Shown here: positions 1 to 20,747 of the stretch, piece by piece | Layout: each line of letters starts with the position of its first letter | Numbering within the stretch: the first letter of the stretch is position 1 | From: a virus | Length of the DNA: 37,063 nucleotides | Virus record (IMG/VR): IMGVR_UViG_3300017967_006162 | Location: 1-37,063 of that record | Direction: 5' to 3' (one strand) | Made by a program: the position numbers and the translations under genes | Notes under the pieces: generated by a model | Seen by the model: the letters and a program-made list of their open reading frames with translations, nothing else | What the model was told of the DNA's origin: nothing | Database searches by the model: none

Positions 1-273
1 CCTTTTTATAGGATGAAAATAGATTGGAATTTAGATATTAGATTTTGTTGTCATGATTGGAAAGAAAAAAAAGTTATGGGTAATTTAAAAAATGATAGTT
101 TAGAAAATTTATGGTATAAATCTTATGAATATATGAGAAAAGAGTTGATAGTTAATAATAGAAAAAATATTTCTCCTTGTAATAAATGTAATGTAAATGG
201 TAAAATTAATACCTACACGAATAAACAAGAAGGTTTAGAACATTTTAATTTTTTTAAAAAATATTATGAATAG
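1..273 (+). CDS. Radical SAM protein, C-terminal SPASM-like end (5' truncated by window)
   Basis: The reading frame is open from base 1, so the first internal Met (base 13) is not the true start and the gene begins outside the window. What is visible is an auxiliary iron-sulfur (SPASM-type) tail: a PFYRM stretch, FCCHDW, a short NL..DSLENLW helix and a final SPCNKCN pair of cysteines. In SPASM proteins this pattern (CC, then CxxC after a Leu/Trp helix) ligates auxiliary [4Fe-4S] clusters. The CxxxCxxC core must lie upstream and cannot be checked, so membership of the radical SAM family is inferred from the tail and from the many related genes downstream. The end overlaps the next start by 8 bases. 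Confidence 0.7.
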   Translation, partial: PFYRMKIDWNLDIRFCCHDWKEKKVMGNLKNDSLENLWYKSYEYMRKELIVNNRKNISPCNKCNVNGKINTYTNKQEGLEHFNFFKKYYE

Positions 274-1051
274 ATTTAGAAAAGAAGAATATTCCGACGA
301 CTATATTAGATTAGATAGAAATGAAGGGCTAGGTTATTGGTCAAATTATCCTAATTTACAATACTATTATACAAAATTTAAAGATTATTTAAAATATGAT
401 AATTTATTTTTTACTGAAGGTGTTTCGGGAGGAATTAAAAATATAATGGAGGTATTAAAGCCTTCAAAAATTTCATATGATTCGGATTTCTCATTATATC
501 CTGTTTTTGAAAAAATCTATTGTCAACCTGTAGGACCTTCTATACAATTTATTGTAAATCCAAAAACAGAAGTGGATTTTAATTATGATTATGTTGTCAT
601 AGATGATGTTTTTCAACATTATCATAATCATAATTGGGATTATTTGTTGCCGAATGTCACTATACTGAGATCTTTTTCTAAAGCATACGGTCTGGCAGGA
701 TTGAGAATAGGATATATGACAGGTCATTTGACAGAACATATTCAGGAGTATAGGGGAGGATATGAATCTAATGAATATTCATTAAGTGTGGCATATAGCA
801 AAATGGTTGAAAATGATGAGTTAAAAAACTCAATGAATCAATTTAAAAAATCATTGAGTTTTTTATTACAGTTTGATTTTTATCACTATAACGGATATTC
901 TAATTATGTTATGTGTGATTATGATTTTTCAGAGAAATTAAAAGAACATAAGATTTTAGTAAAATCTTATGGAAATAAAATGAGAATAACTATTAAAGAA
1001 TATAAAATTATTAAAGAATTGCACGAAAAAATTATGTCATGGAAAAGTTAA
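266..1051 (+). CDS. PLP-dependent aminotransferase, HisC/class I-II fold, short
   Basis: This fold-type I aminotransferase probably transfers an amino group to a small keto or aldehyde substrate. The N-terminal IRLDRNEG resembles the opening of histidinol-phosphate aminotransferase-like proteins. VIDDVFQHY is in the place of the usual pyridine-ring Asp region. SFSKAYGLAGLRIGY contains the expected PLP-binding lysine (K139), and RITIKE near the C-terminus resembles the carboxylate-binding Arg motif. At 261 residues it is clearly shorter than typical members (about 350), mainly in the N-terminal large domain. It overlaps the preceding gene by 8 bases and the following oxygenase gene by 13, so all are probably co-transcribed. 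Substrate unknown; the neighbours suggest an amino sugar or non-protein amino acid rather than histidine synthesis. A terminator-like inverted repeat lies inside the gene (823-864). Confidence 0.85.
   Translation: MNRFRKEEYSDDYIRLDRNEGLGYWSNYPNLQYYYTKFKDYLKYDNLFFTEGVSGGIKNIMEVLKPSKISYDSDFSLYPVFEKIYCQPVGPSIQFIVNPKTEVDFNYDYVVIDDVFQHYHNHNWDYLLPNVTILRSFSKAYGLAGLRIGYMTGHLTEHIQEYRGGYESNEYSLSVAYSKMVENDELKNSMNQFKKSLSFLLQFDFYHYNGYSNYVMCDYDFSEKLKEHKILVKSYGNKMRITIKEYKIIKELHEKIMSWKS
823..864 (+). repeat. 14-bp perfect inverted repeat inside aminotransferase gene (terminator-like)
   Basis: Arms 823-836 and 851-864 are exact reverse complements, with a 14-base A/T-rich loop. The left arm starts with six A and the right arm ends with six T around an ACTCAATGA core, the A-tract/stem/T-tract layout of a bidirectional intrinsic terminator. 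It is wholly within coding sequence, so it could also be chance in AT-rich DNA. Confidence 0.5.
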
Positions 1052-1578
1052 ATATAAAAATAATAGAAGATTTTTTAGAACCATCAACTCTTAAATTGGC
1101 ACAGAAGATATCAAGGAATTTGAAAATAGACAATGATTATAAAAATTTTTTAGGGAAAAGATCTGAACTTGTGAACAGATATTTTATAACTAAAAATTCT
1201 ATCGATGAACATAAAGTTTTAGCCGAAAAAATTTTATCAAACTATGAAAAAAGAAATAATGTCAGAATAGAAATATGTAAAGATAAAAATGGTTTTTGGT
1301 TAAAACCTCATAATGATCATCCAGAAAGAAAAAAAACTATATTAATATATTTGGACGGTGATGGGCCTGGAACTACATTTTATTCGAATGAAAAATTTAC
1401 AGTTGATTTTAAAATAAATCGTGCGGTAGAGTTCAATACTGTCGGTTTGCATACTTACGATTTAAGTCAAATACCGCATGGTGTTGAAAAACAAATTATT
1501 AATGGTACTAGAACCACAATAATTTTATCTTTTATGGATGATAATTGGAGTAATAAGGAAGTATTATATGATACATGA
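1039..1578 (+). CDS. 2OG-Fe(II) oxygenase, prolyl 4-hydroxylase-like
   Basis: A 179-aa non-haem iron dioxygenase of the 2-oxoglutarate superfamily, expected to hydroxylate a small molecule, amino acid or protein side chain. The iron facial triad is readable: H91 and D93 in the HND motif, distal H147 in IPHGVE, with R158 in GTRTTIILSF as the likely 2OG carboxylate ligand. ILIYLDGDGPGTTF matches the strand-turn that follows HxD in prolyl hydroxylase-like proteins (usually YLN...GG). The start overlaps the aminotransferase gene by 13 bases. A second, independent 2OG oxygenase lies at 23252-23701; the two share only the fold-level motifs. Substrate unknown; the context suggests tailoring of the product of this operon. 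Confidence 0.85.
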   Translation: MEKLNIKIIEDFLEPSTLKLAQKISRNLKIDNDYKNFLGKRSELVNRYFITKNSIDEHKVLAEKILSNYEKRNNVRIEICKDKNGFWLKPHNDHPERKKTILIYLDGDGPGTTFYSNEKFTVDFKINRAVEFNTVGLHTYDLSQIPHGVEKQIINGTRTTIILSFMDDNWSNKEVLYDT

Positions 1579-2581
1579 TGAATTTACAAAATTAGAAAAG
1601 TGTTTGGTAGGTATTTCTTACAAATCTTGCGATATTAAAGGGTTAGATAAAATTATTGATGAGACAAATGAAGATCTTAATGAATTGGAAAATATTTTAG
1701 TGAAACAAAATGTTAAAGTTTTACGTCCAATACAGCCTAAATTTTCAATAGATTTGCATCATCCTATAATGCCAAGAGATATATTTGGATTTTATGGTAA
1801 TAAAATGTTTCAAACTTTTGGCGCAATACATTCAAGATTTGAAGAGCATACACTTTATTCGGATGTTGTTAGAGACTGTTTAGATGATTATGAATTATTT
1901 AAAATGTGGAAACCAGATATTGACAAAACTGAAGATTATGATATAATTGAAGACCACTCCAATAAAATTAAGATTCAACAAAGATATGACAAATATAAAA
2001 ATATGATATTGTGGGAAACTGCAAATTTTATAAAATGCGGAGATTGTATTATACACACTCAATCAGCTGATAAAGATCCTAAAAATGGTAAAGGAACGGA
2101 GAAAGGTTTAGAGTGGATGAAATCTTTATTAACCGAATATAAATTCATTGAAGTTTCTGCTGGAGGTCATATTGACGGAAAAATAGCACTTTTGCGTCCA
2201 GGATTATTAATGACCTGGAGGGAAAAATTTATTCCTGAAGAATTGAAAAATTGGGATAAAATTATTATCAAAGACAACTCTAAATTTCCTAAAGAATTTA
2301 AAGAAACTAGAAAAAAGAGATTTTATACTGATTATGTGATGAAATATCTTAGCGATTGGGTAGGCTATTCGAAAGAAACTTGGTTTGATGTTAACTGTCT
2401 TTCTGTTGATGAAAATACAATAATAACTACTGGTAATGACATTGAAAATATAAAAAATATAGAAAAACACCAGATTGATGTGATCACCTGGAATCATAGA
2501 CATAGATATTTTTGGGATGGAGGTGCGCATTGTTGTTCGCAGGACATTTCTAGAACTGGAAAAATGGAATCCTATGTTTGA
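1568..2581 (+). CDS. Amidinotransferase, L-arginine:glycine amidinotransferase-like
   Basis: Guanidine-group-modifying (pentein) enzyme most like glycine/inosamine amidinotransferases, which move the amidino group of arginine onto an amine. Recognisable blocks in order: WETANFIKCGD, a WM..LL stretch, GGHID with catalytic H201, LRPGLLM, WFDVNCLSVDE, and the C-terminal GGAHCCSQDISR with nucleophile C322, ending in a TGKMESYV tail like that of AGAT. The first catalytic Asp of AGAT (in its FDAADF motif) appears to be Glu (E150). The frame is open from 1538, but ATG 1568 is chosen because a strong AAGGAAG site ends at 1561, 6 bases before it. Together with the aminotransferase upstream it could make a guanidino compound from an amine, which is inference. 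Citrulline or arginine hydrolase activity is the main alternative. Confidence 0.88.
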   Translation: MIHDEFTKLEKCLVGISYKSCDIKGLDKIIDETNEDLNELENILVKQNVKVLRPIQPKFSIDLHHPIMPRDIFGFYGNKMFQTFGAIHSRFEEHTLYSDVVRDCLDDYELFKMWKPDIDKTEDYDIIEDHSNKIKIQQRYDKYKNMILWETANFIKCGDCIIHTQSADKDPKNGKGTEKGLEWMKSLLTEYKFIEVSAGGHIDGKIALLRPGLLMTWREKFIPEELKNWDKIIIKDNSKFPKEFKETRKKRFYTDYVMKYLSDWVGYSKETWFDVNCLSVDENTIITTGNDIENIKNIEKHQIDVITWNHRHRYFWDGGAHCCSQDISRTGKMESYV

Positions 2582-3707
2582 TAAAATAGAAGATATATCT
2601 AACAGATTTCAAATTATATGGGATTTAGGTAGAAGATGTTCATATGCATGTTCATATTGTCCTCCTCACAGAAACAATAAATGGTCTCCCATGGCAGATT
2701 TTGAAGAACTTTGTCGAACTATGAAATATGTAAATGACTACTCAACTTTGTATGATGATTTTAGAAAAAAACCTTCCATTAAGAAATTATCATTTACTGG
2801 AGGTGAACCTACATTAAATCCTGCGTTTTTTGATTTTATGCAATATATCTCTGATAATTATTCAAATTATTCTAGAGGATTAACAACTAATGGATGGTTT
2901 GGTAAAAAAAATTTAGAAAAAGTTAAAAAATATACAACAACTGGAACAATTTCATATCATTGCGAATCAACGGAAAAACAAAAAAAAGTAGTAATAGAAA
3001 ATATAATAGAATTGAAAAAAACTTATAAAGTCAATGTCATGTTTCATAAAAACTTTTTTGATGAGTGTGTGGATTTGTGTGATTTGTTGGAAAAAGAGGG
3101 AGTTAATTACATACCAAGAATTATAGGAGATGATATCAATGATGAATTGTCTATATCTTACGGTTATACACATGTTTACAGTAGAGATCAGATGAAATGG
3201 TTCAGAAAATTTTGGAACAATAAAGGTCAAGAAACATCTAAAAAAGGAGATAGTCAAAAAGGATTGGGTAGACCTTGTTGTGGAGGTAGATGTTTTAAAG
3301 TTAATGACCATGATGCATATTTTTTACCATCTACTAATTTTCAAGGATGGAAGTGCATGATTAATTGGTATTTTTTATTTTTGAATCAAGAATTAGATAA
3401 GGTTTGGACTCATCAGACTTGTGCGGTTAATTTGAACGGAGAAGTTGCCCCATTAGGAAATATTTCTAATTTTGATAAAATTATTGATGATTTATCAAAA
3501 TTTTTATATTCCGATAAAAAAATTCCAATGATAACATGTCCTAAAACATTTTGTGGATGTGGTTTATGTATAACAAAAGCAAAAAATGATCACGATATTG
3601 ATTCTTTATTTAAAAATCATACAAAATATTTAGATTATGAAATTGTTTCACAAAAAAATAGTAATTATGAAATAGATCAAACCACTATGCAATTATTTAA
3701 GGATTGA
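2574..3707 (+). CDS. Radical SAM protein, type E (YxCSYC group)
   Basis: Radical SAM enzyme using a [4Fe-4S] cluster to cleave SAM. The cluster motif is C22, C26, C29 (RRCSYACSYC), followed by the SAM-binding SFTGGEPT at about residues 73-80 and a LTTNGW strand. The C-terminal part carries many cysteines (PCCGGRC, GWKC, HQTC, MITCPKTFCGCGLC), consistent with auxiliary clusters. ATG 2574 is preferred over an upstream in-frame ATG at 2517, since the latter would overlap the amidinotransferase by 65 bases and add 19 residues with no family match. The closest relative here is the gene at 16297-17361: both have a W-L-G-R-x-C lead-in, GGEPT, an F-x-GW-x-C strand and a PLGNI motif after the second cysteine group. 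Substrate unknown. Confidence 0.9.
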   Translation: MFDKIEDISNRFQIIWDLGRRCSYACSYCPPHRNNKWSPMADFEELCRTMKYVNDYSTLYDDFRKKPSIKKLSFTGGEPTLNPAFFDFMQYISDNYSNYSRGLTTNGWFGKKNLEKVKKYTTTGTISYHCESTEKQKKVVIENIIELKKTYKVNVMFHKNFFDECVDLCDLLEKEGVNYIPRIIGDDINDELSISYGYTHVYSRDQMKWFRKFWNNKGQETSKKGDSQKGLGRPCCGGRCFKVNDHDAYFLPSTNFQGWKCMINWYFLFLNQELDKVWTHQTCAVNLNGEVAPLGNISNFDKIIDDLSKFLYSDKKIPMITCPKTFCGCGLCITKAKNDHDIDSLFKNHTKYLDYEIVSQKNSNYEIDQTTMQLFKD

Positions 3708-3708
3708 T

Positions 3709-4266
3709 ATGAGAGTTGCTATCGTTGGAGGATCTTATGGAATAGGAAATATTATTGTTAAAAAATTTTCAGCAATAGATTATTCAAGATCAACAGGTTT
3801 TGATATCTCATCAGAAAAAGATAGACATGAAATCATCAGAAAAAGTATTGATTATGATGTTTTTATTAATCACGCATGGTCTGGAGATCACTCACAATAT
3901 ACTCTATTATATGATATTATAAAGTGTTGGAAAAAATTTAATAAAGATGGTTATATAATCAATACGGGCTCAATAAATACACATTTTAAAAATTATGATA
4001 ATTTAACTTCAAATTTATCTATAAAAACGGCATTGGATGAACTTTGCAAAATGTCTTTTAAGCAATTTCAAAGTAAAAAAATAAATTTCAAAGTTACAAA
4101 TTTAAAATTAGGATTGTTAGACACGGAAATCAATAGAAATAAAAAAGAATGGAAGGGAAGAGGAATTACGGAAATCGAATATTACAATCTAATAACATAT
4201 TTATTGAACACACCTGTCGATTTTTTGATAGGTGAAATGGTAATAGAAACAAGAAATGAATTATAA
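3709..4266 (+). CDS. Short-chain dehydrogenase/reductase-like protein
   Basis: Rossmann-fold SDR: the nucleotide-binding motif GGSYGIG (residues 7-13) is intact, the INHAW segment takes the place of the NNAG motif, and the catalytic Ser is probable in IINTGSIN. In the expected YxxxK site the lysine is present (SIKTAL), but the tyrosine position is Asn, so normal proton transfer may be lost or done by another residue. At 185 aa it is shorter than classical SDRs (about 250). It starts 1 base after the radical SAM stop and overlaps the next radical SAM start by 11 bases. It may be an oxidoreductase or epimerase acting on the same pathway, or a non-catalytic NAD(P)-binding relative. Confidence 0.75.
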   Translation: MRVAIVGGSYGIGNIIVKKFSAIDYSRSTGFDISSEKDRHEIIRKSIDYDVFINHAWSGDHSQYTLLYDIIKCWKKFNKDGYIINTGSINTHFKNYDNLTSNLSIKTALDELCKMSFKQFQSKKINFKVTNLKLGLLDTEINRNKKEWKGRGITEIEYYNLITYLLNTPVDFLIGEMVIETRNEL

Positions 4267-5341
4267 TAATTTATTTGCACATTGGCATATTGAATTATCT
4301 TCAAAATGCGCACTAAAATGTCCCAGATGTCCTAGAACAGAATATCCCGGTAGTTATAAAATAACTGAGTTGAATTTAAATTTTTTTAAAAAAAATTTTA
4401 CTGAAAAATTCATTAATGATTATGTTAAATATATAGATTTTTGTGGCGGACAAGGGGACCCTATATATTGCAAAGACATAATTCGAATAATTGAATATTT
4501 AAAAAATATTAAAAAAGATTTAGAAATTAAGATAATCACGAATGGCAGCTATAAAAAAGCAGAGTGGTGGAATGAATTAAGTTCTCATTTAAATATATAC
4601 GATACTGTGGTTTTTTCAATAGATGGATGGGATCAAGAATCGAATCAAAAATATAGAGTTAATTCTGACTGGGATACCATTGAAACTGGTATTAAAGAAG
4701 TTGTAAAATCAGAAGCACTTGTAAAATGGTCAACCATTGTTTTTAGTTTCAATCAAAATCATTTGAATAATATAAAAGATAAAGCACAATCTTTAAATGT
4801 TGATCAATTTAGAATTGTAAATTCAACTAATTTTGGAAAAAAACATGAAAAATATATTGATCAATTTCTCGGTTATGATCCTTTGCAGCCGTCCGAGGAG
4901 TTTATAGGAAAATATCCGGTTCATTTTAGAAATCAATATGTGTTAATGAGTGATAAAATTAAGTACATTGATTTAAGGCGAGAAAAAACTAAAAAGTATA
5001 ATGAATATTTGAAAAGATGTGATGATGAGGCTAAATTATATGAGACTGATTTGATAACTCCTAAATGCTTTAAAGGAGATTATGGTAAATACATTGATGC
5101 TGAAGGTATAATGTACCCTTGCAGTTGGGTCAGTCATCCTTATAAAATTAAAAAAAGTAATTTTTCTAATCGTGAAATTGAGTTTAAAGATTCATTATGG
5201 GTCAAAGATAAGAAATGTTTTGATTTAAATAAAAACACAATCGAAGACGTTATTAATAGTCACCATTGGTATAAAGTTATTTCCTCTTGGAAAAATAAAC
5301 AAAACTGTTTTGTAGAATGTAGTCACAAATGTTTGAAATAA
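4256..5341 (+). CDS. Radical SAM/SPASM protein, type B
   Basis: The core motif is C18, C22, C25 (KCALKCPRC), with an Arg-Thr-Glu right after it. The usual GGEP SAM-binding motif is replaced by CGGQGDP, a variant shared by all four type-B genes of this window. IITNGS and VVFSIDGWD follow as the later barrel strands. The C-terminal SPASM-like region reads CFKGDYGKYIDAEGIMYPC, then a late pair of cysteines CFVECSHKC. The last residues overlap the start of the next radical SAM gene by 13 bases. Type-B relatives: 5329-6309, 9898-10848 and 19713-20747. SPASM proteins often act on peptides, but several act on small molecules, so the target is open. Confidence 0.9.
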   Translation: MNYNNLFAHWHIELSSKCALKCPRCPRTEYPGSYKITELNLNFFKKNFTEKFINDYVKYIDFCGGQGDPIYCKDIIRIIEYLKNIKKDLEIKIITNGSYKKAEWWNELSSHLNIYDTVVFSIDGWDQESNQKYRVNSDWDTIETGIKEVVKSEALVKWSTIVFSFNQNHLNNIKDKAQSLNVDQFRIVNSTNFGKKHEKYIDQFLGYDPLQPSEEFIGKYPVHFRNQYVLMSDKIKYIDLRREKTKKYNEYLKRCDDEAKLYETDLITPKCFKGDYGKYIDAEGIMYPCSWVSHPYKIKKSNFSNREIEFKDSLWVKDKKCFDLNKNTIEDVINSHHWYKVISSWKNKQNCFVECSHKCLK

Positions 5342-6309
5342 AAAAAATTGAAATAGAAGTATCAACTCTCTGCAATGCAAAATGTTCTGGTTGCATGAGA
5401 ACAATGCTTGATGAAAGACAGGAAAAATATTTGAAAAAATATTTAGATTTTGCTGACATACATAGATGGTTTAATGATATTAATTTAAAAGATGTGAATT
5501 TAAAATTATGTGGTGTTCTGGGTGATCCAATCACAAATTTAGATTTGGAAGATATAATTTTTTATTTTTTATATGAAAAAAATGTAAAAACTATTGAAAT
5601 GTCTACAAACGGAGGAACGAGAAGTGGTAATTTTTGGCAGAGTTTAGGTCAAATGTCTAAAAATTCGAAAGATAGATTTTACATTCATTGGGCAATAGAC
5701 GGGGTAAAAACCAATTTTTATAGGGAAAATGTTTCATTAGAAAAAGTTTGGGAAAATGTTAATAGTTATCATTCAACTGGAGGAAAGTCTGTTTGGCAAT
5801 TTATAATATTTGATTATAATGAGCATGAAATTGAAGATGCTAGGAATATTGCCAAAAAAAATAATATGAAATTTGCAACTAGAAAAAGTTGGAGAAACAC
5901 TCTTGGAACGGCAAAATTTAAATCACAACAATCTAAAATGGATTTAAATTATGAGGTAATTGAACATAAAGCATATACTTTAAATTATGAGAATCCTAAT
6001 ATTTTATGTAGACATAAAACAGACAATGAAATTTACATAGGAGTTGATGGTAGAGTTTGGCCATGTTGTCATCTATATGATGAAATAGTGTCGAAAGAAG
6101 CTGAACAGATTAGAAAAGTTTTAATGAAAATGGGAAAAGATTTTAATAATTTATATGTAAACAAATTAACAGATATTGTTGAATCTAGTTGGTACTCTAG
6201 AATACTAGAAGAAAGTTGGAAAAAAAATCATGAATTACATATTCCTAGATGTTATTTAACTTGTGGTGATAAAGGAAAACGTAGTGTAATAAAAAATATG
6301 GAATTTTAA
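5329..6309 (+). CDS. Radical SAM/SPASM protein, type B
   Basis: C15, C19, C22 (LCNAKCSGC) form the radical SAM motif directly at the N-terminus after an IEIEVST strand. The SAM-binding segment is CGVLGDP rather than GGEP. STNGGTR and HWAIDGV follow. The C-terminal auxiliary region has ILCRHK, then VDGRVWPCCHLYD and a last pair CYLTCG, a readable SPASM arrangement. It is most like 9898-10848: both have the SGC cluster end, the VWQFIIFDYNEHE / IWQFIVFDWNEHQ strand and the WPCCHL / IPCCHL motif. Its stop codon shares one base with the start of the next gene (TAATG), so the two are translationally coupled; the B-A pair reappears at 9898-12134. Confidence 0.9.
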   Translation: MFEIKKIEIEVSTLCNAKCSGCMRTMLDERQEKYLKKYLDFADIHRWFNDINLKDVNLKLCGVLGDPITNLDLEDIIFYFLYEKNVKTIEMSTNGGTRSGNFWQSLGQMSKNSKDRFYIHWAIDGVKTNFYRENVSLEKVWENVNSYHSTGGKSVWQFIIFDYNEHEIEDARNIAKKNNMKFATRKSWRNTLGTAKFKSQQSKMDLNYEVIEHKAYTLNYENPNILCRHKTDNEIYIGVDGRVWPCCHLYDEIVSKEAEQIRKVLMKMGKDFNNLYVNKLTDIVESSWYSRILEESWKKNHELHIPRCYLTCGDKGKRSVIKNMEF

Positions 6310-9923: not shown

Positions 9924-10848
9924 AAATGTAGAATGGTTAGATATAGAACTAACATCTTATTGTAACATATTTTGTTCTGGTTGTTTAAGACAGCAATCTA
10001 ATCATATAGATTCCTTAAAAAATGATAAAACTATAAGTTTTCAAAATATAAAAGACTGGTTAAAAAATGAAAATTTTCCAAATATTAAAACTATTAATTT
10101 TTGTGGAACCATAGATGAACCTACAACACATCCTGAACTTTTTAAAATACTGAAATATTTTTTTAATTGGAACGTACATATCAGTATATCTACAAATGGA
10201 TCTACGAGAACAAAACATTTTTGGGCAAAGTTTGGAGAATTATTGAAAGGCAAAGATCATGCTGTTTTTTTCGGTATTGATGGTCTTGATGGATTAAGTG
10301 AAAAATATCGAATCGGCAGTAAATATGAAAAAGTTCGAGAAAATTATAGATCTTTTATTGATAGCGGAGGTAATGCTATATGGCAATTTATAGTTTTTGA
10401 TTGGAATGAGCATCAACTGGAAAGAGCAAAAGACTTTTCTCTGAATGAGGGTTTTTCAAAATTTAGAGTAATATATTCTCACAGAAAAACCAGTGGCGAA
10501 AAAAAGAAAGAACGCATAGGTGATGACATAATTGAATGTAAGTATTGGAAAAATAAAAGATTATTTTTAAATCATATGGGAGATTTGATTCCTTGTTGTC
10601 ATTTGAATGCGGAAACATTAGAGTACAATGCTTCTAATAAAATAAAAACTAATTATGGACATTTATATAAAGAAAGTGGAAGTATGTTATCAACGAATTT
10701 AAAATATAACACAGTTGACGAAGTTTTAGAGGGAGATGTATTTTCAAATGTAATTAAATCTTGGAAAACAAAAAATCCTGTACAAAAATGTTATAAAACT
10801 TGTGCGCAAAAAAACTATGATATTTTTATGGATAGTAGAAACAAATGA
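9898..10848 (+). CDS. Radical SAM/SPASM protein, type B
   Basis: Second copy of the type-B gene at 5329-6309. The core motif is C22, C26, C29 (YCNIFCSGC) after a WLDIELTS strand; the SAM-binding position reads CGTIDEP rather than GGEP. STNGSTR and FFGIDGLDG follow, then the shared IWQFIVFDWNEHQ strand. The SPASM part reads IIECKYW, GDLIPCCHLN, and a final pair CYKTCAQ. The start could be ATG 9898 or ATG 9910 (4 residues shorter); neither has a strong ribosome site, so translation probably depends on coupling to the upstream gene. The end overlaps the type-A gene at 10845 by 4 bases. Confidence 0.88.
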   Translation: MLKRMWKSENVEWLDIELTSYCNIFCSGCLRQQSNHIDSLKNDKTISFQNIKDWLKNENFPNIKTINFCGTIDEPTTHPELFKILKYFFNWNVHISISTNGSTRTKHFWAKFGELLKGKDHAVFFGIDGLDGLSEKYRIGSKYEKVRENYRSFIDSGGNAIWQFIVFDWNEHQLERAKDFSLNEGFSKFRVIYSHRKTSGEKKKERIGDDIIECKYWKNKRLFLNHMGDLIPCCHLNAETLEYNASNKIKTNYGHLYKESGSMLSTNLKYNTVDEVLEGDVFSNVIKSWKTKNPVQKCYKTCAQKNYDIFMDSRNK

Positions 10849-14329: not shown

Positions 14330-15756
14330 GAGTATTTAATCCTTGTTTTTGTTGTTAAACCAATACCTACCAATATAAATGTCAGAGATAAGATTCCTAA
14401 ACTAATTGGTCTTTGTAATAAAATATCATAAGAATATAGAGCATTGAATTGAATATACAAACTTTCTAATCTTTCCGCTAAAATAAATCCGAGTATAAGT
14501 GCGGCACGATTGAAATGAAATCGTTTTAGTATTAGACCGAATATACAAAAGAAACCGAATATTAGATAATCTTCAATACCTTTTGTATATTGTATAGACA
14601 CCCAAATCAATAACAACATAATGAACCAGAAGAAATATTTGAAAGGTATTTTAACAATGTTTACTGCATATCTTACAAAAATGACAGCAATAAAAAATGT
14701 TAAAATTAAACTCAATATATAACTTTCTGTCATATAGTTAAAAAAAGTTATGTCAAGTAATAGATCAGGCGAACCTAGTTCTAAACCTACAAGCATAAAC
14801 AAACTAATTATGATAATTTCAAATGGTGCACCCGGAATTCCAAACAGTATTGTAGGAATATAACTGGTCGCTTTTTGTGCATTATTTGCTCCTTCACACC
14901 CTACTACGCCTCTTACATTTCCGTTTCCAAATGTTTCTTTTTTATTCAAGGCAATCGTTTGTCCATATGCCAACCAATCGGCAACATTTCCTCCAATTCC
15001 AGGTATAGCACCGATAACAGCACCGATAAATCCTCCTCGAAGTCCATCCCATTTGTATATCCAGCTGTCTTTAAAACCTTGTACTATTTGTTTTTTGATG
15101 TCAAAAATATCTGATGATTTATTTTTATCATTTAGATATGCATGAAGCAATTCAGGAAATGCTAAAATTCCTGCCATGATAGGGACAAGTTGAATACCAT
15201 CACCTAGGTATTGAATATCAAGAGTAAATCTTTCATCTCCTGTGATTGGATTTTGACCAATCATTCCTAAAAATATGCCAATGATGAGTGCTAAAAATCC
15301 ACGAAAATAATGTTGGTTATTTATAAAAATGACAGAAAAAAATGCTAGAATAAGAAATACAAACATTTCAGGTATACCAAAATTTAACACAAATCCAGTA
15401 TAATGTGGTAAAAAAAGAAAAACGATGATGCCCCAGAGTAAACCGTTAACTGTTGAAACACATATTGCTGCACCTAATGCTCTTGCTCCTTCATTTCTTT
15501 GTGCCATAGGAAAACCATCAATCATTGTTGCTGCACTTCCTCCGGCACCAGGTATGTTCAACATAATACTTGAAAAACTATCACCTATAGAAGATGAAAC
15601 CACAATAGAGGTTGTGAATGCAACTAAAAGGTAGGGTTCGTATTGAAAATATTGATAAAAAGAAAAAACTGTTATGAGGGCAGTTGTCGCTCCTGCTACT
15701 GGAATTAAACCAAATATAAAACCATATAATGTACCCAATAATATAATAAAAAGCAT
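14326..15756 (-). CDS. tctA: TctA: large membrane subunit of tripartite tricarboxylate transporter
   Basis: Polytopic inner-membrane permease subunit driving ion-coupled uptake. The hydrophobic segments span the whole 476 residues. Two family signature blocks are clear: SIMLNIPGAGGSAATMIDGFPMAQ region (about residues 63-86) in the first half, and GAIPGIGGNVADW followed by GCEGANNAQKATSYIPT and LFGIPGAPFE in the second. Family members are about 500 aa; this one lacks roughly the first 20 residues and begins inside the first membrane segment (MLFIILLGTLYG). It is adjacent to TctC, but no TctB (small, four-segment membrane subunit) is found in the window. By eye the gene is less AT-extreme than the radical SAM array, possibly from later acquisition. 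Confidence 0.9.
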   Translation of the reverse strand: MLFIILLGTLYGFIFGLIPVAGATTALITVFSFYQYFQYEPYLLVAFTTSIVVSSSIGDSFSSIMLNIPGAGGSAATMIDGFPMAQRNEGARALGAAICVSTVNGLLWGIIVFLFLPHYTGFVLNFGIPEMFVFLILAFFSVIFINNQHYFRGFLALIIGIFLGMIGQNPITGDERFTLDIQYLGDGIQLVPIMAGILAFPELLHAYLNDKNKSSDIFDIKKQIVQGFKDSWIYKWDGLRGGFIGAVIGAIPGIGGNVADWLAYGQTIALNKKETFGNGNVRGVVGCEGANNAQKATSYIPTILFGIPGAPFEIIIISLFMLVGLELGSPDLLLDITFFNYMTESYILSLILTFFIAVIFVRYAVNIVKIPFKYFFWFIMLLLIWVSIQYTKGIEDYLIFGFFCIFGLILKRFHFNRAALILGFILAERLESLYIQFNALYSYDILLQRPISLGILSLTFILVGIGLTTKTRIKYS

Positions 15757-15776
15757 AATTAAATTCTTATCTTCTG

Positions 15777-16296: not shown

Positions 16297-17361
16297 ATGA
16301 TTAAAAGTAATTATGATTTTTCAAAAATTCCCTGGGATGATATTCAAAGTGTTGGAACTTTTAAGATGCTTGAAAGTGATTTATTTACAGTATCATGGTT
16401 ATTAGGTAGATTTTGCAATTATAGATGTTCTTACTGCTGGCCTTATGCTAGAAGCAATACCAAAGATCACCGACCTACATCATTATGTTTAGACACAATA
16501 GATGAAATAAAAAAACAAGCAAGAGAAAATGGTTTTAATAGTTTTCATTTTAGTCTTTCCGGCGGAGAACCCACGTTTCATCCCGGATATCTTGATATTA
16601 TTCAGCGTTTAGCTGATGATGTTGAAAACACTAATTATACCTCAAATCATATGACTTCAAATTGTTCTCGGCCAATGAAATGGTTTGAGGAATATGTTAA
16701 TTACACGAAACGTTTTACACGATCATCCATCACAGCATCATTTCATAGAGAATTCATTAATAGTCACAATAAACGACAAGAATGGGCAGATAAATTAGAA
16801 TTTTGTCAACAGAATGGTGTAAGAGTGACCATTAATTCAGTAATGGTTCCAGAGAAATTTGATGAAATTTATGATGATCTTATGTATTTCTATCAACGAG
16901 GTATCAATATCACATTGAAACCACAGAGTGATCCTACAGCGAGTAAAGTTGTTGACGGATATACAAAAGAACAATTGAATATTCTACATAACGGAATGCC
17001 TCAGATTACAAATATGGAAGTTAAATCAAAAAAAGAAAAAAATATTCGTCAAGAATTTGAAATAATCATGAAAGATTCTACCGGCAAAGAATGGTATCTT
17101 GATCAAGCAGAACGATTCAATGCTTTTAATTTCAATAATTTTAAGGGATGGAATTGTAGAGCAGGATATCAAAGTATCATTATACGAGAACCCGATGGAA
17201 GTATAAAAAGAAGTTATAGTTGTGCTGATGTTCCATTAGGTAATATTGAAACTGGATTTAAGTTGTTTTCTAAACCTATACCCTGTATAACCAATTCATG
17301 TGTGAGTTCAGCAGATAGCAAAATACCAAAAAATATAAAACAGGATGTGATAAATGCATGA
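16297..17361 (+). CDS. Radical SAM protein, type E
   Basis: From ATG 16297 the motif is C40, C44, C47 (FCNYRCSYC), then FSLSGGEPTFHP, a MTSNCS strand and a C-terminal cysteine region (GWNCRAGY, YSCADVPLGNI, IPCITNSC). It pairs with 2574-3707 by the WLLGR lead-in, SYC motif, GGEPT, F.GW.C strand and PLGNI. The frame is open to a TTG at 16279 and an ATG at 16285; these overlap the divergent methyltransferase start and add only 4-6 unconserved residues, so the start is uncertain within 18 bases. By eye this gene is richer in G+C and uses CGA/CGT arginine codons more often than the array before it, hinting at a different origin. Confidence 0.88.
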   Translation: MIKSNYDFSKIPWDDIQSVGTFKMLESDLFTVSWLLGRFCNYRCSYCWPYARSNTKDHRPTSLCLDTIDEIKKQARENGFNSFHFSLSGGEPTFHPGYLDIIQRLADDVENTNYTSNHMTSNCSRPMKWFEEYVNYTKRFTRSSITASFHREFINSHNKRQEWADKLEFCQQNGVRVTINSVMVPEKFDEIYDDLMYFYQRGINITLKPQSDPTASKVVDGYTKEQLNILHNGMPQITNMEVKSKKEKNIRQEFEIIMKDSTGKEWYLDQAERFNAFNFNNFKGWNCRAGYQSIIIREPDGSIKRSYSCADVPLGNIETGFKLFSKPIPCITNSCVSSADSKIPKNIKQDVINA

Positions 17362-18667
17362 GCCGAGAGAATTTCAAAAAATTTTTAGAGTCCCCGATAA
17401 AACCAACACTTTTTGTTATTATCCATTTTACGCATTAGTTTTTAAATTATATGAAAATGATAAATTATCAAAGGTCGCACCTTGCTGTATGATGCACGAT
17501 ACCAATCAAAATACAATATTAGAAAAATCTGAGTTGCAAAATTTAGATCCTGATCAAATTTTCAATCATCAAAAATTTGTGGAATTTAGAAATAATATTT
17601 TAAATAATATAAAAGATCCTAGATGTCAAACTTGTTGGAAATTAGAGGAAAATGGTTTTATTTCACATCGTATGTATACTGGATGGGATTTTGATGAGCC
17701 TTTTAGTACAGAATTGAGAGAGGTTGATATTTCATTGTCAAATAAGTGTAATCTGGCCTGTCGAATGTGCAATATTGGATCATCACATCAATTATATAAA
17801 GATCTTGATGAAATAAAAAAATTAAATTTAATGGAAAAATTTAATTATGCCTCTGATTTTTCTATGAATTCAAAATCATTACCAAAAAATACTACTAATA
17901 ATTTATTGTTTAAATGGATATTTGATAATACAGACAAAATAAAAGTTTTAAAGATATCAGGAGGTGAACCTTTTTACGACAATAACGTCATAAAATTGTT
18001 ACAAAAATTTATCAAAGACGGAAATTCAAAAAATACAAGATTAGTTTTTCATACTAATGGTATTTTAATAGATGATTCTATGATACAAATATTGAATAAA
18101 TTTAAAAGTCAAATGCATACGTTTAGCATTGATGGAGTAGATAATACATATAATTATATTAGACATTATTCTAATTTTAATGTTTTAGAAAAAAATTTAA
18201 TCAATTGGTTTAAAAAATCAAACAATATTAAATCTTTTAATTGTAATTTTGTAATATCAGCATTAAATTTAGATAACATTATTGATTTTATGGATTGGAT
18301 TATTATGATGTTTCATTTGAAGATAAAATGTAATATTTTCTTCTCCTCAGTCAGACCAATTGAGAGAGGGATTCACATTAGAAATTTACCCGTAAATCAT
18401 TTAATAAAAATCAAATCAAAATTTTTAAAATTCTATAATTTTTTCGAAAAAATCAGACAGAAAGAAATGGGGTTAAAAAATCATTTTTTTTATGAGAGTG
18501 AAAATATTTTTCAAATTTTAGACAACTCTATTGAGAATAACTTTTATGAAAAAAATAAATTTAAGTTATATGATGAGATAACAATTTTAGATCAAGCAAG
18601 GAATCAAAACTATAGTGATTATGTCAGTAAAGATTTAAAGGAAATACTTGACAATTTGAAAAAATAA
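17354..18667 (+). CDS. Radical SAM protein with N-terminal twitch-like Cys domain, type D
   Basis: Second type-D copy (437 aa). N-terminal auxiliary site: FCYYPF (C21), APCCMM (C44-C45), RCQTCW (C91, C94). Radical SAM motif C132, C136, C139 (KCNLACRMC); LKISGGEPFYDN; FHTNGI; HTFSIDGVD. The AGGA at 17342-17345 is 8 bases before ATG 17354, and the start overlaps the preceding gene by 8 bases. It is separated from its paralogue 12131-13324 by the minus-strand transporter block and one type-E gene, so the two may once have been closer. The last third is Lys/Asn/Phe rich without cysteine groups. Confidence 0.9.
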   Translation: MHEPREFQKIFRVPDKTNTFCYYPFYALVFKLYENDKLSKVAPCCMMHDTNQNTILEKSELQNLDPDQIFNHQKFVEFRNNILNNIKDPRCQTCWKLEENGFISHRMYTGWDFDEPFSTELREVDISLSNKCNLACRMCNIGSSHQLYKDLDEIKKLNLMEKFNYASDFSMNSKSLPKNTTNNLLFKWIFDNTDKIKVLKISGGEPFYDNNVIKLLQKFIKDGNSKNTRLVFHTNGILIDDSMIQILNKFKSQMHTFSIDGVDNTYNYIRHYSNFNVLEKNLINWFKKSNNIKSFNCNFVISALNLDNIIDFMDWIIMMFHLKIKCNIFFSSVRPIERGIHIRNLPVNHLIKIKSKFLKFYNFFEKIRQKEMGLKNHFFYESENIFQILDNSIENNFYEKNKFKLYDEITILDQARNQNYSDYVSKDLKEILDNLKK

Positions 18668-18686
18668 TGATAATATAAGGTGATGA

Positions 18687-19520
18687 ATGAAAAATTTTTT
18701 CATATATGGTGATAGTTATTTTGAAGAATGTGAACATGATGAAGAATACGTAAAATACTCCTGGTTAGTTAAATTGAAGAACCATTTTAAAAACAAATAT
18801 TGTTTTTTTAACTATGCTCAATCTGGTACAGGACCCCATTATTCTTTTAATTTGTTTAATGACCATTTATTCAATGAAAATAAAATTTATGCAGGTGACA
18901 TTGTATTGTTTCACCTTTCACATTTTGACAGAATTCAATTCATTACACATCCATCTTTAACGTTTGATGTTTCCACTAGAATAAAATATGATTTTATCAA
19001 TAATAGAACATATATAGTATCAGATTGGACAGAAGGTAATGATAAAGAAAAAAAATTATTAAAATATTATGAAATGTATAAAAAAGAAATAGAATTTTTT
19101 TTCATGACTATATCAAAACAATTATTGTATGAAAATTCAAAAAATTTGTCTTTTTTATATTCTATATCTTTATTATATGATATAAAAATTATAGTATTTG
19201 CTAATGATTTAAGTGGAGAATTTGATAATTTTTTTAAATTGAATTATAATAATTTTTTTTTCTCTCCTGTAAATTTGTTTGATTTAAGTTATCGAGAACT
19301 TCTTAAAGAACAAGAATATTATTATAGAGAAAAACTTTACTTGGATTTAAGAAAAAATCATCTATCTCCTGAAAATCATGAAAAAATGTTCGAGTATCTT
19401 TTAAACATATTAAATAATGATTATAAAAATTTACCAAAATTTAAAACAAATTTTAAAGATTATAATGATATTTTAATAATTAAATCAAATAATAATAAAA
19501 AAGATTTTATATATGAGTGA
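18687..19520 (+). CDS. SGNH/GDSL hydrolase-like protein
   Basis: The N-terminus FFIYGDSYFEE matches block I of SGNH hydrolases (GDS, Ser10 as the possible nucleophile). QSGTGPHYS is in the place of block II (Gly), and near the C-terminus NHLSPENHEKMFEYL matches block V, with H225 as the likely catalytic His. The usual Asp three residues before that His is Arg here; an Asp is two residues further back. Such enzymes often add or remove acetyl groups on glycans, or are phage virion esterases. The N-terminal SYxE and HLSPEGH-like style resembles phage and capsule-locus members. AAGGTGAT, 6 bases before ATG 18687, supports the start after a 19-base gap. Confidence 0.7.
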   Translation: MKNFFIYGDSYFEECEHDEEYVKYSWLVKLKNHFKNKYCFFNYAQSGTGPHYSFNLFNDHLFNENKIYAGDIVLFHLSHFDRIQFITHPSLTFDVSTRIKYDFINNRTYIVSDWTEGNDKEKKLLKYYEMYKKEIEFFFMTISKQLLYENSKNLSFLYSISLLYDIKIIVFANDLSGEFDNFFKLNYNNFFFSPVNLFDLSYRELLKEQEYYYREKLYLDLRKNHLSPENHEKMFEYLLNILNNDYKNLPKFKTNFKDYNDILIIKSNNNKKDFIYE

Positions 19521-19734
19521 TTTTTTGATAAAGCTTTTAGATGATTATACATTACGAGAATTGCAAATATATTCCTCAAAAATTTTGTCTGCGCACAACG
19601 CAACTAGTAGTTTTATAAAACAATTTCAATCTGAACATGATAGTGTTCAATTTTATAAAAATGTTATATTTTGGTATATAACAAAATATAATTCATTTCC
19701 TGATGATGATATATGTACAAATCAAATGAAATAA
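19513..19734 (+). CDS. Small protein of unknown function (73 aa)
   Basis: Not recognised. It starts at an 8-base overlap with the SGNH gene and ends with a 22-base overlap into a radical SAM gene, so it sits in the coupled operon and is probably real. The protein is predicted mostly helical (LLDDYTLRELQIYSSKIL then SFIKQFQSEHDSVQFYKNVIFWYITKYN) with a single cysteine near the end and no hydrophobic membrane stretch. Its size and place before a SPASM enzyme make a peptide substrate or a small partner worth a thought, but no leader/core layout or repeated residue pattern is visible. Confidence 0.55.
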   Translation: MSDFLIKLLDDYTLRELQIYSSKILSAHNATSSFIKQFQSEHDSVQFYKNVIFWYITKYNSFPDDDICTNQMK

Positions 19735-20747
19735 CACACATACATTTAGAACCAACACAAAAATGTCAAGCAGAATGTCCAATGTGTGACAGAACAAATA
19801 ATAAACATTTGAAAAATGCTGATTTAGATATAACGACATTTAAAAAAATAGTCGATTCAGATTTTGTTCACCAATTGAACAGTTTAATAATGTGCGGAAA
19901 TCATGGTGATCCGATCATTGCAAAAGACACATTGAAAATTTATGATTATTTGCGTCAAGAGAATTCTAAAATATATTTACACATGACAACAAATGGAGGA
20001 GCAAGAAACGATAAATGGTGGAGAGAATTGGCGAAAATTTTCGGTAATAGGGGAAAGGTCACATTTTCAGTAGATGGATTAGAGGATACGAACCACTTGT
20101 ATAGAGTAAATGTCGATTGGGATAGAATTGAAAATTCAATGGACGCATTTACGAGTGCAGGAGGTAAAGGTTTATGGGTTTTTTTAATTTTTGAACACAA
20201 TGAACATCAGGTCGATGATGCTGAGAGAATGGCTAAACTATTTGGTCTTCAGTTTATAAAGAAAAAAAGTGGTAGATGGGTACAAACAAAAAATAAAATA
20301 TCAGAAAAAGAAACGAATAAAGGAAATTATATTAAACCTCCATCGAATCAAAATTATCAAAATAAAAGTGTTAATACTTATGATGATCTGATAACAAAAT
20401 TTGGCAGTTTTCAAAATTATTTAGACAATACTGTAATATCTTGTAAATCAATTTTAAATAAAGAAATTTATATATCCGCTGAAGGTTTAATTTTTCCTTG
20501 TTGTTGGACTGCGGGTAGATTGTATAAAACATATCAGAAAATAGGCGAAGATCAAATATGGAATTTTATTGAAGATTTGGAAAAAATTAATGCGAAAAAT
20601 GTTCCGTTGAGAAAAATAATTGACGGAGATTTTTTTAAAAAAATTGAAAAATCATGGAGTTTATCTTCTTGTAAAGAAGGGAAAGCAGAAATATGCGCAC
20701 AAAAATGTGGAAATGGGTTTGATGCTTATGGAGATCAATGGAAATGA
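19713..20747 (+). CDS. Radical SAM/SPASM protein, type B
   Basis: C18, C22, C25 (KCQAECPMC) with DRTN after it, then CGNHGDP in place of GGEP, TTNGGAR and FSVDGLED. The auxiliary region reads ISCKSIL, AEGLIFPCCWTAG and two closing cysteine groups (SSCKEGKAEIC, AQKCG), a SPASM arrangement. It is the most distant of the four type-B genes by position, about 9 kb from the nearest copy, and lies just before the glycosyltransferase run, which it overlaps by 10 bases. IHLEPTQ before the motif is the usual first barrel strand. Substrate unknown. Confidence 0.9.
   Translation: MYKSNEITHIHLEPTQKCQAECPMCDRTNNKHLKNADLDITTFKKIVDSDFVHQLNSLIMCGNHGDPIIAKDTLKIYDYLRQENSKIYLHMTTNGGARNDKWWRELAKIFGNRGKVTFSVDGLEDTNHLYRVNVDWDRIENSMDAFTSAGGKGLWVFLIFEHNEHQVDDAERMAKLFGLQFIKKKSGRWVQTKNKISEKETNKGNYIKPPSNQNYQNKSVNTYDDLITKFGSFQNYLDNTVISCKSILNKEIYISAEGLIFPCCWTAGRLYKTYQKIGEDQIWNFIEDLEKINAKNVPLRKIIDGDFFKKIEKSWSLSSCKEGKAEICAQKCGNGFDAYGDQWK

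What the first reader, a model, noticed from the sequence alone, without database searches (positions are those of the whole stretch)
1..20747. Thirteen radical SAM genes in about 20.7 kb of a T4-like phage
Thirteen genes (one 5'-truncated) show the CxxxCxxC core or its auxiliary Cys tail. Phages usually carry none or one or two. The genes overlap by a few bases and are intact, so this is an expressed enzyme set, not debris. With aminotransferase, amidinotransferase, oxygenases, SDR, methyltransferases and glycosyltransferases it looks like a phage-borne biosynthetic pathway whose product is unknown.
Basis: partly seen in the sequence, partly recalled or inferred. Interest (0 to 1): 0.9.

Follow-up and report, generated by a model that had tools for sequence, protein, structure and literature searches.

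The report
Multi-enzyme radical SAM phage island
A marine T4-like virus of bacteria carries a dense, intact set of thirteen radical enzymes whose core is shared with many uncultured viral sequences and with chromosomes of predatory bacteria, pointing to a real but unsolved chemical pathway, most likely one that decorates sugars on the phage or its host.

Summary
Twelve complete radical SAM (rSAM) domains and one cut rSAM tail lie in 20.7 kb; record G002 shows the cut gene whole and a further rSAM, R0, upstream. The window recurs at 99.97-99.98% in two other IMG/VR records that run on into gp32 and tail genes, so a chimera is unlikely. Thirteen of 14 records reached through an rSAM match hold 6-19 rSAM domains; seven phages used as controls hold 0-2. 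Precedents are in print: CP220/CPt10 (11-12) and a TARA phage (12). New here: a colinear core (ORFs 5, 8, 12, 13, 18, 22-26) with low dN/dS, the highly conserved R0 with a PP-loop partner, and an R18-R22-R0 set, often with the o25 methyltransferase or F3/F4, in Bdellovibrionales genomes. ORF4's family is a firm amidinotransferase; other loci add StrS aminotransferase, carbamoyltransferase and cytidylyltransferase. Best guess: synthesis and attachment of an unusual guanidino/amino sugar. Product and target are untested.

The parts
1..273 (+). ORF1: C-terminal SPASM part of an rSAM gene cut by the record's end
   Evidence: PF13186 38.9 bits; whole gene in G002 4868-5623 with PF04055 53 bits
266..1051 (+). 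ORF2: PLP aminotransferase, HisC/CobD-like, short
   Evidence: PF00155 27.8 bits; TIGR01141 66 bits, far under its cut-off; 32-37% relatives in 4 of 18 loci
1039..1578 (+). ORF3: possible 2OG-Fe(II) oxygenase
   Evidence: PF13640 19 bits, under cut-off 27; relatives 35-36% in 2 of 18 loci
1538..2581 (+). ORF4: amidinotransferase (StrB/AGAT type)
   Evidence: profile A10 hits StrB1 1bwd 3.4e-24, AGAT 1e-18, HsvA 4e-17, SxtG 9e-14; relatives in 9 of 18 loci, 62-63% in 6
2574..3707 (+). ORF5 (R5): core rSAM; longest ORF starts 2517
   Evidence: PF04055 37.7 bits; 62-65% to 4 relatives; 19 IMG/VR contigs, two of them this phage
3709..4266 (+). ORF6: short SDR-like protein
   Evidence: PF00106 24.5 bits, cut-off 26.6
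4256..5341 (+). ORF7 (R7): rSAM with C-terminal Cys tail
   Evidence: PF04055 39 bits
5329..6309 (+). ORF8 (R8): core rSAM/SPASM
   Evidence: PF04055 30.2, SPASM 26.4 bits; reciprocal best hit in 4 of 4 relatives, 51-60%
6309..7610 (+). ORF9 (R9): N-twitch rSAM, 47% paralogue of ORF13
   Evidence: NF033640 193.5 bits
7607..8815 (+). ORF10 (R10): N-twitch rSAM
   Evidence: NF033640 174.6 bits
8805..9923 (+). ORF11 (R11): N-twitch rSAM with orthologues in relatives
   Evidence: NF033640 258.3 bits; reciprocal best hit in 4 of 4, 41-46%
9898..10848 (+). ORF12 (R12): core rSAM, SPASM-like tail
   Evidence: PF04055 37.3 bits; SPASM 18.8 bits, under cut-off 21.5; 49-51% in 4 of 4
10845..12134 (+). 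ORF13 (R13): core N-twitch rSAM
   Evidence: NF033640 212.2 bits; reciprocal best hit 33-68% in 4 of 4
12131..13324 (+). ORF14 (R14): N-twitch rSAM
   Evidence: NF033640 195.5 bits; PF04055 22.9 bits, under cut-off
13310..14329 (-). ORF15: secreted-type protein, TctC-like by eye only
   Evidence: no Pfam or NCBIfam family above threshold; resemblance recalled
14326..15756 (-). ORF16: TctA tripartite tricarboxylate transporter subunit
   Evidence: PF01970 308.5 bits
15777..16286 (-). ORF17: unassigned, methyltransferase-like by eye
   Evidence: no Pfam hit
16297..17361 (+). ORF18 (R18): core rSAM, widely shared; longest ORF starts 16279
17354..18667 (+). ORF19 (R19): N-twitch rSAM, 40% paralogue of ORF14
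   Evidence: NF033640 217.1 bits
18687..19520 (+). ORF20: unassigned, SGNH-hydrolase-like by eye
   Evidence: no Pfam hit; relatives 27-36%
19513..19734 (+). ORF21: 73-aa conserved protein directly before R22
   Evidence: family in 28-29 of 80 R0 loci
19713..20747 (+). ORF22 (R22): core rSAM with C-terminal Cys-rich tail, no SPASM hit
   Evidence: PF04055 35.9 bits; 68-69% to 3 phages; family in 56-58 of 80 R0 loci
20738..21493 (+). ORF23: probable glycosyltransferase, core
   Evidence: phrog_1962 glycosyltransferase E 1.5e-4; 39-62% in 3 relatives
21480..22082 (+). ORF24: core protein of unknown function
   Evidence: 41% in 3 relatives, over 66 aa only in G008
22079..22708 (+). ORF25 (o25): class I SAM methyltransferase fold, core
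   Evidence: AlphaFold2 pLDDT 91.5; Foldseek PDB best E 2.8e-7, the listed rows nearly all methyltransferases, TM 0.46-0.61 by query length; profile in 53 of 80 R0 loci
22702..23265 (+). ORF26: GT8-like, core
   Evidence: PF01501 18 bits, under cut-off 24.3; 26-53% in 3 relatives
23252..23701 (+). ORF27: 2OG-Fe(II) oxygenase
   Evidence: PF13640 51.7 bits
23691..24389 (+). ORF28: GT-like by eye
   Evidence: 58% in G008; no Pfam or PHROG hit
24367..28048 (-). ORFs 29, 31, 33, 34: two pairs of a putative tail-locus protein and a partner
   Evidence: ORF31 profile in 14 of 80 R0 loci but 0 of 80 R18 loci; in five loci a relative follows, with two ORFs between, family 75, whose member in L178 matches DUF4815; fold not resolved
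28132..30807 (+). ORF35: glycosyltransferase plus FkbM methyltransferase
   Evidence: PF00534 38.1, PF05050 56.9 bits
31805..35311 (+). ORF37: GT2, GT4-type and GT9 domains
   Evidence: PF00535 65.9, PF00534 35, PF01075 28.2 bits
36123..36955 (+). ORF40 gp33 and ORF41 gp59 of T4-like phages
   Evidence: PF16805 81.5 bits; PF08993 53.9 and PF08994 38.7 bits

Best explanation
It is a biosynthetic island of a marine T4-like phage, probably exchanged between phages. Around a core (R0 and a PP-loop enzyme just upstream of the window; rSAMs ORFs 5, 8, 12, 13, 18, 22; methyltransferase ORF25; glycosyltransferase-like ORFs 23 and 26) each phage adds its own extra rSAMs, amidinotransferase, aminotransferase and oxygenases. 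I think the set builds an unusual sugar or glycan during infection: rSAM enzymes oxidise, epimerise or rearrange sugar carbons, the aminotransferase and amidinotransferase put on amino and guanidino groups, methyltransferases and oxygenases finish it, and glycosyltransferases attach it to a surface glycan or to the phage's own tail appendage, so changing adsorption, superinfection or recognition. Shown: enzyme families, core conservation, low dN/dS, sharing with bacterial genomes. Inferred: that the substrate is a sugar, the reactions and their order, exchange between phages, and the target.
For: Core order R5-R8-R12-R13-R18-R22-o23-o24-o25-o26 is identical in window, G003, G006 and G008 (G003 and G006 are close relatives). 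dN/dS 0.05-0.27 in 14 of 14 genes run, G003 against G006 (o24 and some accessory genes were not run). Four module proteins are more alike between window and G006 (R0 77%, R22 68%, R5 65%, R18 64%) than gp32 (59%), gp33 (40%) or gp59 (39%). ORF4's profile is closest to the aminocyclitol amidinotransferase StrB1. In two other R0 loci (L198, L210) neighbours are a DegT/StrS aminotransferase (68 bits), a carbamoyltransferase (179 bits) and a cytidylyltransferase (58.6 bits). CP220 has 5 rSAM, amidinotransferase and 2 nucleotide-sugar-transferase-fold genes in a row; cyanophage S-SCSM2R has glycosyltransferases, rSAM, 2OG oxygenases and inosamine amidinotransferase in a row. ORF11's profile touches cytosylglucuronate decarboxylase, a sugar rSAM, at E 1e-3. 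Tasman Sea viromes are reported enriched in rSAM and glycosyltransferase genes together (PMC7150976, passages).
Against: No nucleotide-sugar synthesis gene was identified in the window. SPASM and twitch domains are commoner in peptide-modifying rSAMs (recalled); ORF11's profile hits MoaA (4e-7), 5wgg (3e-5; recalled as the peptide maturase CteB) and SkfB (2e-3) better than or about as well as the sugar enzyme. StrS, carbamoyltransferase and cytidylyltransferase were identified in other loci, not in the window. GT assignments of ORFs 23, 26 and 28 are weak or by eye; the F3/F4 family, GT-like only by its DGDN motif, has no Pfam or PDB match. Against exchange as a block: R8 58%, R13 57%, R12 51%, o25 50%, R11 46%, o24 41% and o26 27% to G006 are below gp32's 59%. 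Against a tail target: the ORF31 profile is absent from 66 of 80 R0 loci and from 80 of 80 R18 loci, 6 kb flanks.
Confidence: 0.4

Rival explanations
1. Peptide or protein modification: the SPASM/twitch rSAMs act on a ribosomally made protein, either a virion protein or the small conserved ORF21 protein that sits before R22.
For: R8 has a SPASM domain, R12 a sub-threshold one, R11 and R13 N-terminal twitch regions. ORF21 family in 28-29 of 80 R0 loci, in 10 of these directly before R22 by my count. ORF11's profile hits 5wgg and SkfB.
Against: ORF21 relatives are conserved along most of their length and vary mainly at the ends, more like a small folded protein than a precursor with a variable core. 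ORF21 is missing from most R0 loci (51 of 80), and no o21 profile match appears in the chromosomal loci examined.
Confidence: 0.25
2. Small diffusible molecule: the island makes a guanidino or carbamoylated metabolite (toxin, siderophore or nutrient analogue) that helps the infected cell or harms competitors.
For: The amidinotransferase profile also matches the small-molecule enzymes SxtG and HsvA; carbamoyltransferase in a related phage locus and a bacterial cluster; in the window a TctA transporter gene is embedded in the array.
Against: Glycosyltransferases in and beside the core; no NRPS, PKS or exporter named by Pfam among the 39 ORFs scanned; a close-relative scan found TctA in no viral contig but the two near-identical copies.
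Confidence: 0.15
3. DNA or RNA hypermodification: the enzymes make or elaborate a modified base.
For: R0 often neighbours a PP-loop enzyme with a weak QueC match (21.3 bits, cut-off 22). DNA of many Campylobacter phages resists restriction enzymes (PMC2853527, passage), and CP220/CPt10 are multi-rSAM phages of that host.
Against: No DNA-base kinase, hydroxymethylase, TET/JBP enzyme or DNA glycosyltransferase was named by Pfam in the window; the PP-loop profile's best PDB match is asparagine synthetase (0.008); core members sit in Bdellovibrionales genomes.
Confidence: 0.12
4. Neutral hoard: rSAM cassettes accumulate in a hypervariable region by recombination and do little.
For: Accessory rSAMs differ from phage to phage.
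Against: dN/dS 0.05-0.27 in 14 of 14 genes run, conserved core order, R0 and R18 relatives in hundreds of viral contigs.
Confidence: 0.04

Closest known systems
Exchangeable rSAM plus glycine amidinotransferase module of Campylobacter phages CP220 and CPt10 (Timms 2010, PMC2853527; passages read)
   Same: Cluster of five rSAM genes with an amidinotransferase and nucleotide-sugar-transferase-fold genes; 11 rSAM in CP220, reproduced here; authors call it an interchangeable module
   Different: Identities of window rSAMs to the CP220 stretch are 23-31%; R0, ORF5, ORF13 and ORF18 have no CP220 match at E 1e-5 in the whole phage collection, though in a small pairwise set ORF5 and ORF12 are reciprocal best hits at 30-31%
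TARA_ERS488813_N000010, T4-like marine genome with 12 rSAM genes (Nishimura 2017, PMC5332604; passages read)
   Same: Marine T4-like genome of 183 kb with as many rSAM genes
   Different: The passage treats them under Fe-S metabolism, not as a core module; I did not have its sequence, so orthology is untested
Radical SAM cassettes in the host recognition cluster of pelagimyophages (Zaragoza-Solas 2020, PMC7029224; one section and passages read)
   Same: Marine T4-like phages; rSAM cassettes and glycosyltransferases in a hypervariable island with tail fibres
   Different: That island lies between VrlC and gp14; here the array ends beside gp33-gp59-gp32; its other end was not seen
R18-R22-R0 with o25 or F3/F4 in Bdellovibrionales genomes (found here)
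   Same: R18 54-60%, R22 38-50%, R0 50-51% identical to the phage proteins, close together
   Different: On long bacterial contigs among genes I read by eye as housekeeping; partners differ; no description was seen in the listings of the paper searches

Membership tests
Radical SAM superfamily (PF04055) | CxxxCxxC cluster motif in an rSAM core scored by the family profile | tested here: met
   12 of 13 ORFs carry both in the window (11 over the cut-off); ORF1 meets it in its whole copy in G002
NF033640 N-terminal twitch rSAM subfamily | score over the curated cut-off of 170 bits | tested here: met
   6 of 13 ORFs: 9, 10, 11, 13, 14, 19; not met by 5, 7, 8, 12, 18, 22 and truncated ORF1
StrB/AGAT amidinotransferases (ORF4) | profile similarity to solved amidinotransferases | tested here: met
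   StrB1 3.4e-24, AGAT 1e-18; Pfam PF02274 alone was under its cut-off (17.4 against 22.8); activity not tested; one relative (L114) lacks the Cys at the aligned position
CP220/CPt10-type rSAM-amidinotransferase module | several rSAM genes with an amidinotransferase in a T4-like phage | tested here: met
CP220/CPt10-type rSAM-amidinotransferase module | orthologous enzymes | tested here: inconclusive
   four core rSAMs have no CP220 match at E 1e-5; ORFs 5, 12 and 4 are reciprocal best hits at 25-31% in a small set
Pelagimyophage host recognition cluster | position between VrlC and gp14 | tested here: inconclusive
   one end runs up to gp33-gp59 and gp32; the other end lies beyond every record of this phage held, and VrlC and gp14 were not searched for
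RiPP cluster with rSAM maturase | short precursor gene with conserved leader and variable core next to the maturase | tested here: inconclusive
   ORF21 is short and before R22 but conserved along its length; no RRE test made
Guanidino/amino-sugar pathway | amidinotransferase, sugar aminotransferase and nucleotide-sugar synthesis genes together | tested here: inconclusive
   amidinotransferase in window; StrS aminotransferase and cytidylyltransferase only in other loci; no nucleotide-sugar synthesis gene named in the window

The most novel reading that the evidence does not exclude
R18-R22-R0 with a class I methyltransferase, the F3/F4 proteins and often a PP-loop enzyme form an undescribed biosynthetic system shared by Bdellovibrionales genomes and hundreds of uncultured viral contigs, T4-like phages among them, in which successive rSAM steps build a new kind of decorated glycan (or protein modification) that the phages use on virion or host surface; the window shows one of its large phage elaborations.
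Probability: 0.37. Interest if true: 0.85.

Novelty: new variant of a known kind. Interest (0 to 1): 0.63.

Why it matters
Radical SAM enzymes do chemistry that few other enzymes can, and a virus pays for every kilobase. Enzymes kept by selection, with relatives in hundreds of viral contigs, yet matched weakly or not at all in 50,697 annotated GenBank phage records (R0, ORFs 5, 13, 18), mark a large blind spot. The link to genomes of predatory bacteria gives relatives that may be cultivated or cloned and in which the product could be found, and turns an odd gene count into a testable core of three rSAMs and a methyltransferase.

Tried and rejected
Assembly chimera: unlikely, since the whole window lies in two other records at 99.98% and 99.97% with gp32 and a tail protein (104 records, best place 21% and named baseplate hub subunit) beyond; other downstream genes were read by eye. 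I could not check that the three metagenomes are independent samples.

Debris or pseudogenes: rejected. Single fixed pathway of all 13 rSAMs: rejected; only part is conserved.

'Acidimicrobiaceae' origin: the best hit of the genome scan (L127, a 16.6-kb stretch at 31% G+C) carries the phage core in phage order, so I treat its contig as phage binned with a MAG; against this, that MAG has no T4 portal match. L246, in a 'Betaproteobacteria' MAG that does hold a T4 portal, looks like phage too.

Host from TctA: no close relative in the first genome scan, none at E 1e-40 in 141 genomes of the class of G020; 7 phage-collection records match at 25-28%. Host left open.

ORF31 as a proven tail fibre: model too poor (pLDDT 54), no match in the phage collection. 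Sequence searches of the PDB for o25 and F3/F4 found nothing; for R5, R22, R0 and R18 only weak rSAM hits or chance.

R0 tree: 80 phage sequences formed one group with support 0.35 and a single outgroup, and the 10 bacterial ones did not group alone; too weak to give a direction of transfer.

Most of these contigs were not tested for T4 genes.

Changes after the one check: the exchange argument was narrowed, the zero counts were added, and for these the best explanation went from 0.42 to 0.40 and the novel case from 0.40 to 0.37.

Full report
What is there. The window is a 37,063-base IMG/VR virus record, linear, so probably a fragment. I took 41 ORFs forward, two of them antisense and unlikely. 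In 1-20747 twelve ORFs have a Radical_SAM match; eleven pass Pfam's cut-off and ORF14 passes the NF033640 cut-off instead. ORF1 is a SPASM tail whose whole gene, in record G002, is an rSAM/SPASM protein. Six of the thirteen pass the cut-off of the N-terminal twitch subfamily NF033640. Paralogy is visible: ORF9/ORF13 47%, ORF14/ORF19 40%, ORF10/ORF11 32%, ORF8/ORF12 30%. The far end carries gp33 and gp59. No tRNA and no Rfam match were found.

Is it real and unusual. The whole window occurs at 99.98% in G002 (60 kb) and 99.97% in G001 (84 kb). G002 continues downstream into gp32 (58-60% to Methylophilales phage Melnitz, cyanophages and HTVC008M) and a tail protein, and upstream into R0 (474 aa, N-twitch type), a PP-loop protein and a cut rSAM-like ORF at its first base. 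In 14 other IMG/VR records reached through an rSAM profile the number of PF04055 domains is 2 to 19, 6 or more in 13, and CP220 has 11; the records were picked by an rSAM hit and two are the window's own phage, so this is no estimate of frequency, and the domains need not lie in one array. Seven phage genomes, five picked by gp32 similarity, T4 by name and one by an amidinotransferase hit, have 0, 0, 1, 0, 0, 1 and 2. So it is more than chance, but not without precedent: Timms 2010 reports 11 and 12 rSAM genes in CP220 and CPt10 with an interchangeable cluster of five plus an amidinotransferase, Nishimura 2017 a marine T4-like genome with 12, Zaragoza-Solas 2020 rSAM cassettes in pelagimyophage host recognition clusters, and a survey of the Tasman Sea an enrichment of rSAM and glycosyltransferase genes in viral contigs (PMC7150976). 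I saw passages of these papers and one section of the third.

A conserved core inside a variable array. Reciprocal best hits against stretches of four relatives (G003, G006, G007, G008) show ORFs 5, 8, 11, 12 and 13 in 4 of 4 and ORFs 18, 22, 23, 24, 25 and 26 in 3 of 4 (not in the 40 of 43 kb of G007 held); ORFs 4, 10, 14, 19, 20, 28, 31 and 33 in some. No match was found there for ORFs 2, 3, 6, 15, 16, 17 and 27, and ORFs 7 and 9 have only non-reciprocal rSAM hits. Further loci do carry relatives of ORFs 2, 3 and 4, and SDR-like genes resembling ORF6 by eye occur in viral and bacterial loci. The order R5-R8-R12-R13-R18-R22-o23-o24-o25-o26 is the same in the window, G003, G006 and G008; only R11 moves. 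Between G003 and G006 dN/dS is 0.05 to 0.27 in the 14 genes I ran. Between window and G006, R0 (77%), R22 (68%), R5 (65%) and R18 (64%) exceed gp32 (59%), while R8 58%, R13 57%, R12 51%, o25 50%, R11 46%, o24 41% and o26 27% do not, and gp33 and gp59 are at 40% and 39%. Exchange of part of the module between phages is likely, not shown.

R0, the gene next door. R0, 1.5 kb upstream of the window's first base in the same phage, is the most conserved: 77-84% in 16 of 18 loci, 65% in one; in the last the stretch held only a 26% match, while its contig holds an 80% copy. The PP-loop protein is in 16 of those 18. An R0 profile found 398 viral relatives; in the best 80 the R22 family is in 58, o25 in 53, F3/F4 in 33, the PP-loop in 32, o21 in 29, R11 in 25, R5 in 19, R18 in 18, the ORF31 family in 14 and the amidinotransferase in 14 (clustering at 38% gives lower numbers). 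In many loci of the second half of the list the order F3-o25-(o21)-R22-R0 recurs, often with F4. R18 has at least 547 viral relatives, the best 80 at 64% or more; within 6 kb of it the PP-loop lies in 27 of 80, R22 in 26, R5 in 24, R11 in 20, R0 in 13, o21 in 8, the amidinotransferase in 8, o25 in 5, and F3/F4 and ORF31 in none. So R18 and the F3-o25-R22-R0 group meet in some phages only. In the GenBank phage collection R0 has three weak partial matches (26-27%), ORFs 5, 13 and 18 none, ORF8 three (Campylobacter phages, 26%) and ORF4 six.

The same genes in bacteria. A genome scan led to Bdellovibrionales MAGs. ORF18's profile matches 15 of 143 at E 1e-40, and these include all 13 (hypergeometric P 1e-16, which ignores kinship). 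At that threshold it matches 0 of 116 genomes of the class of G024 (a Microcystis) and 0 of 274 of the class of G022. In the ten best R0 loci, 4.3 kb each, R22 is present in 10 (directly next to R0 in 9, an ORF apart in L251), R18 in 7, and o25 or F3/F4 in 7. On a 937-kb contig (G097) R18 is 60%, R22 38-50% (two parts) and R0 50% identical to the phage proteins, near genes I read by eye as prfA, prmC, murA and serS; G100 shows them on a 494-kb contig. T4 portal genes are absent from G016, G017, G018, G020 and G023. So this is a cellular as well as a viral set. Two such genomes show 37 and 42 NF033640 matches, weak ones included.

What the enzymes say. ORF4's family is a firm amidinotransferase, closest to StrB1 and AGAT, then HsvA and SxtG. 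ORF25 folds as a class I methyltransferase with high confidence. ORF35 joins a glycosyltransferase to an FkbM methyltransferase and ORF37 holds three glycosyltransferase domains; ORF23 weakly matches a phage glycosyltransferase family. In R0 loci L198 and L210 the neighbours include a carbamoyltransferase, an amidinotransferase-like protein, a DegT/StrS aminotransferase and a cytidylyltransferase; a carbamoyltransferase also lies in the cluster of G016. CP220 and cyanophage S-SCSM2R combine rSAM, amidinotransferase and glycosyltransferase-type genes too. That is the logic of sugar decoration, as in aminoglycoside-type sugars (recalled). The rSAM profiles do not decide: ORF11's best solved relatives are MoaA, peptide-type maturases and a sugar decarboxylase.

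Target. ORFs 29-34 look like two pairs of a repeat-rich protein and a partner. ORF31's family occurs in 14 of 80 R0 loci but in none of 80 R18 loci; in five R0 loci it stands shortly after family 75, one member of which matches DUF4815, as in a tail operon. I read them as tail-locus proteins; the fold could not be predicted. They or the host surface may receive the product. This step is inference.

Verdict. Observation confirmed. Interpretation partly supported: a maintained phage biosynthetic island, of a kind known since 2010, but with a defined conserved core and a bacterial counterpart that I did not see described in the listings of my searches. New variant of a known kind; a categorically new pathway is possible and testable.

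Noticed in passing
window 13310-16286 (-): A minus-strand TctA gene (308 bits) with a secreted-type partner is inserted inside the rSAM array; a close-relative scan of viral contigs found it only in the two near-identical copies of this phage, and 7 records of the phage collection match at 25-28%.
   Followed up: partly
L127 (contig PBYV01000081.1): A contig filed under an Acidimicrobiaceae MAG carries the phage core; probably a misbinned phage contig, though that MAG has no T4 portal match.
   Followed up: partly
L246 (G022 contig 10): A contig of a Betaproteobacteria TMED41 MAG looks like phage by eye: rSAM genes, oxygenase-like and tail-fibre-like proteins; the MAG also holds a T4 portal gene.
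   Followed up: partly
G016, G020: Two Bdellovibrionales MAGs show 37 and 42 matches to the N-twitch rSAM profile (weak ones included), against 3-15 in the other eight genomes of the call.
   Followed up: no
window 19513-19734 and L197-L234: A family of about 74 aa recurs near R22; one member has no Pfam or PHROG match.
   Followed up: partly
window 24367-28048 (-): Two tandem pairs of a repeat-rich protein and a smaller partner; no match in the phage collection for ORF31.
   Followed up: partly
window 35298-35942: A ClpP-like protease gene (95 bits) stands shortly before the gp33-gp59 genes.
   Followed up: no
L107 (cyanophage S-SCSM2R, about 229-236 kb): A separate cluster of glycosyltransferases, rSAM, 2OG oxygenases, an AHBA-synthase-like gene and an inosamine amidinotransferase in a cyanophage with a named Synechococcus host; a tractable model for the chemistry.
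   Followed up: no
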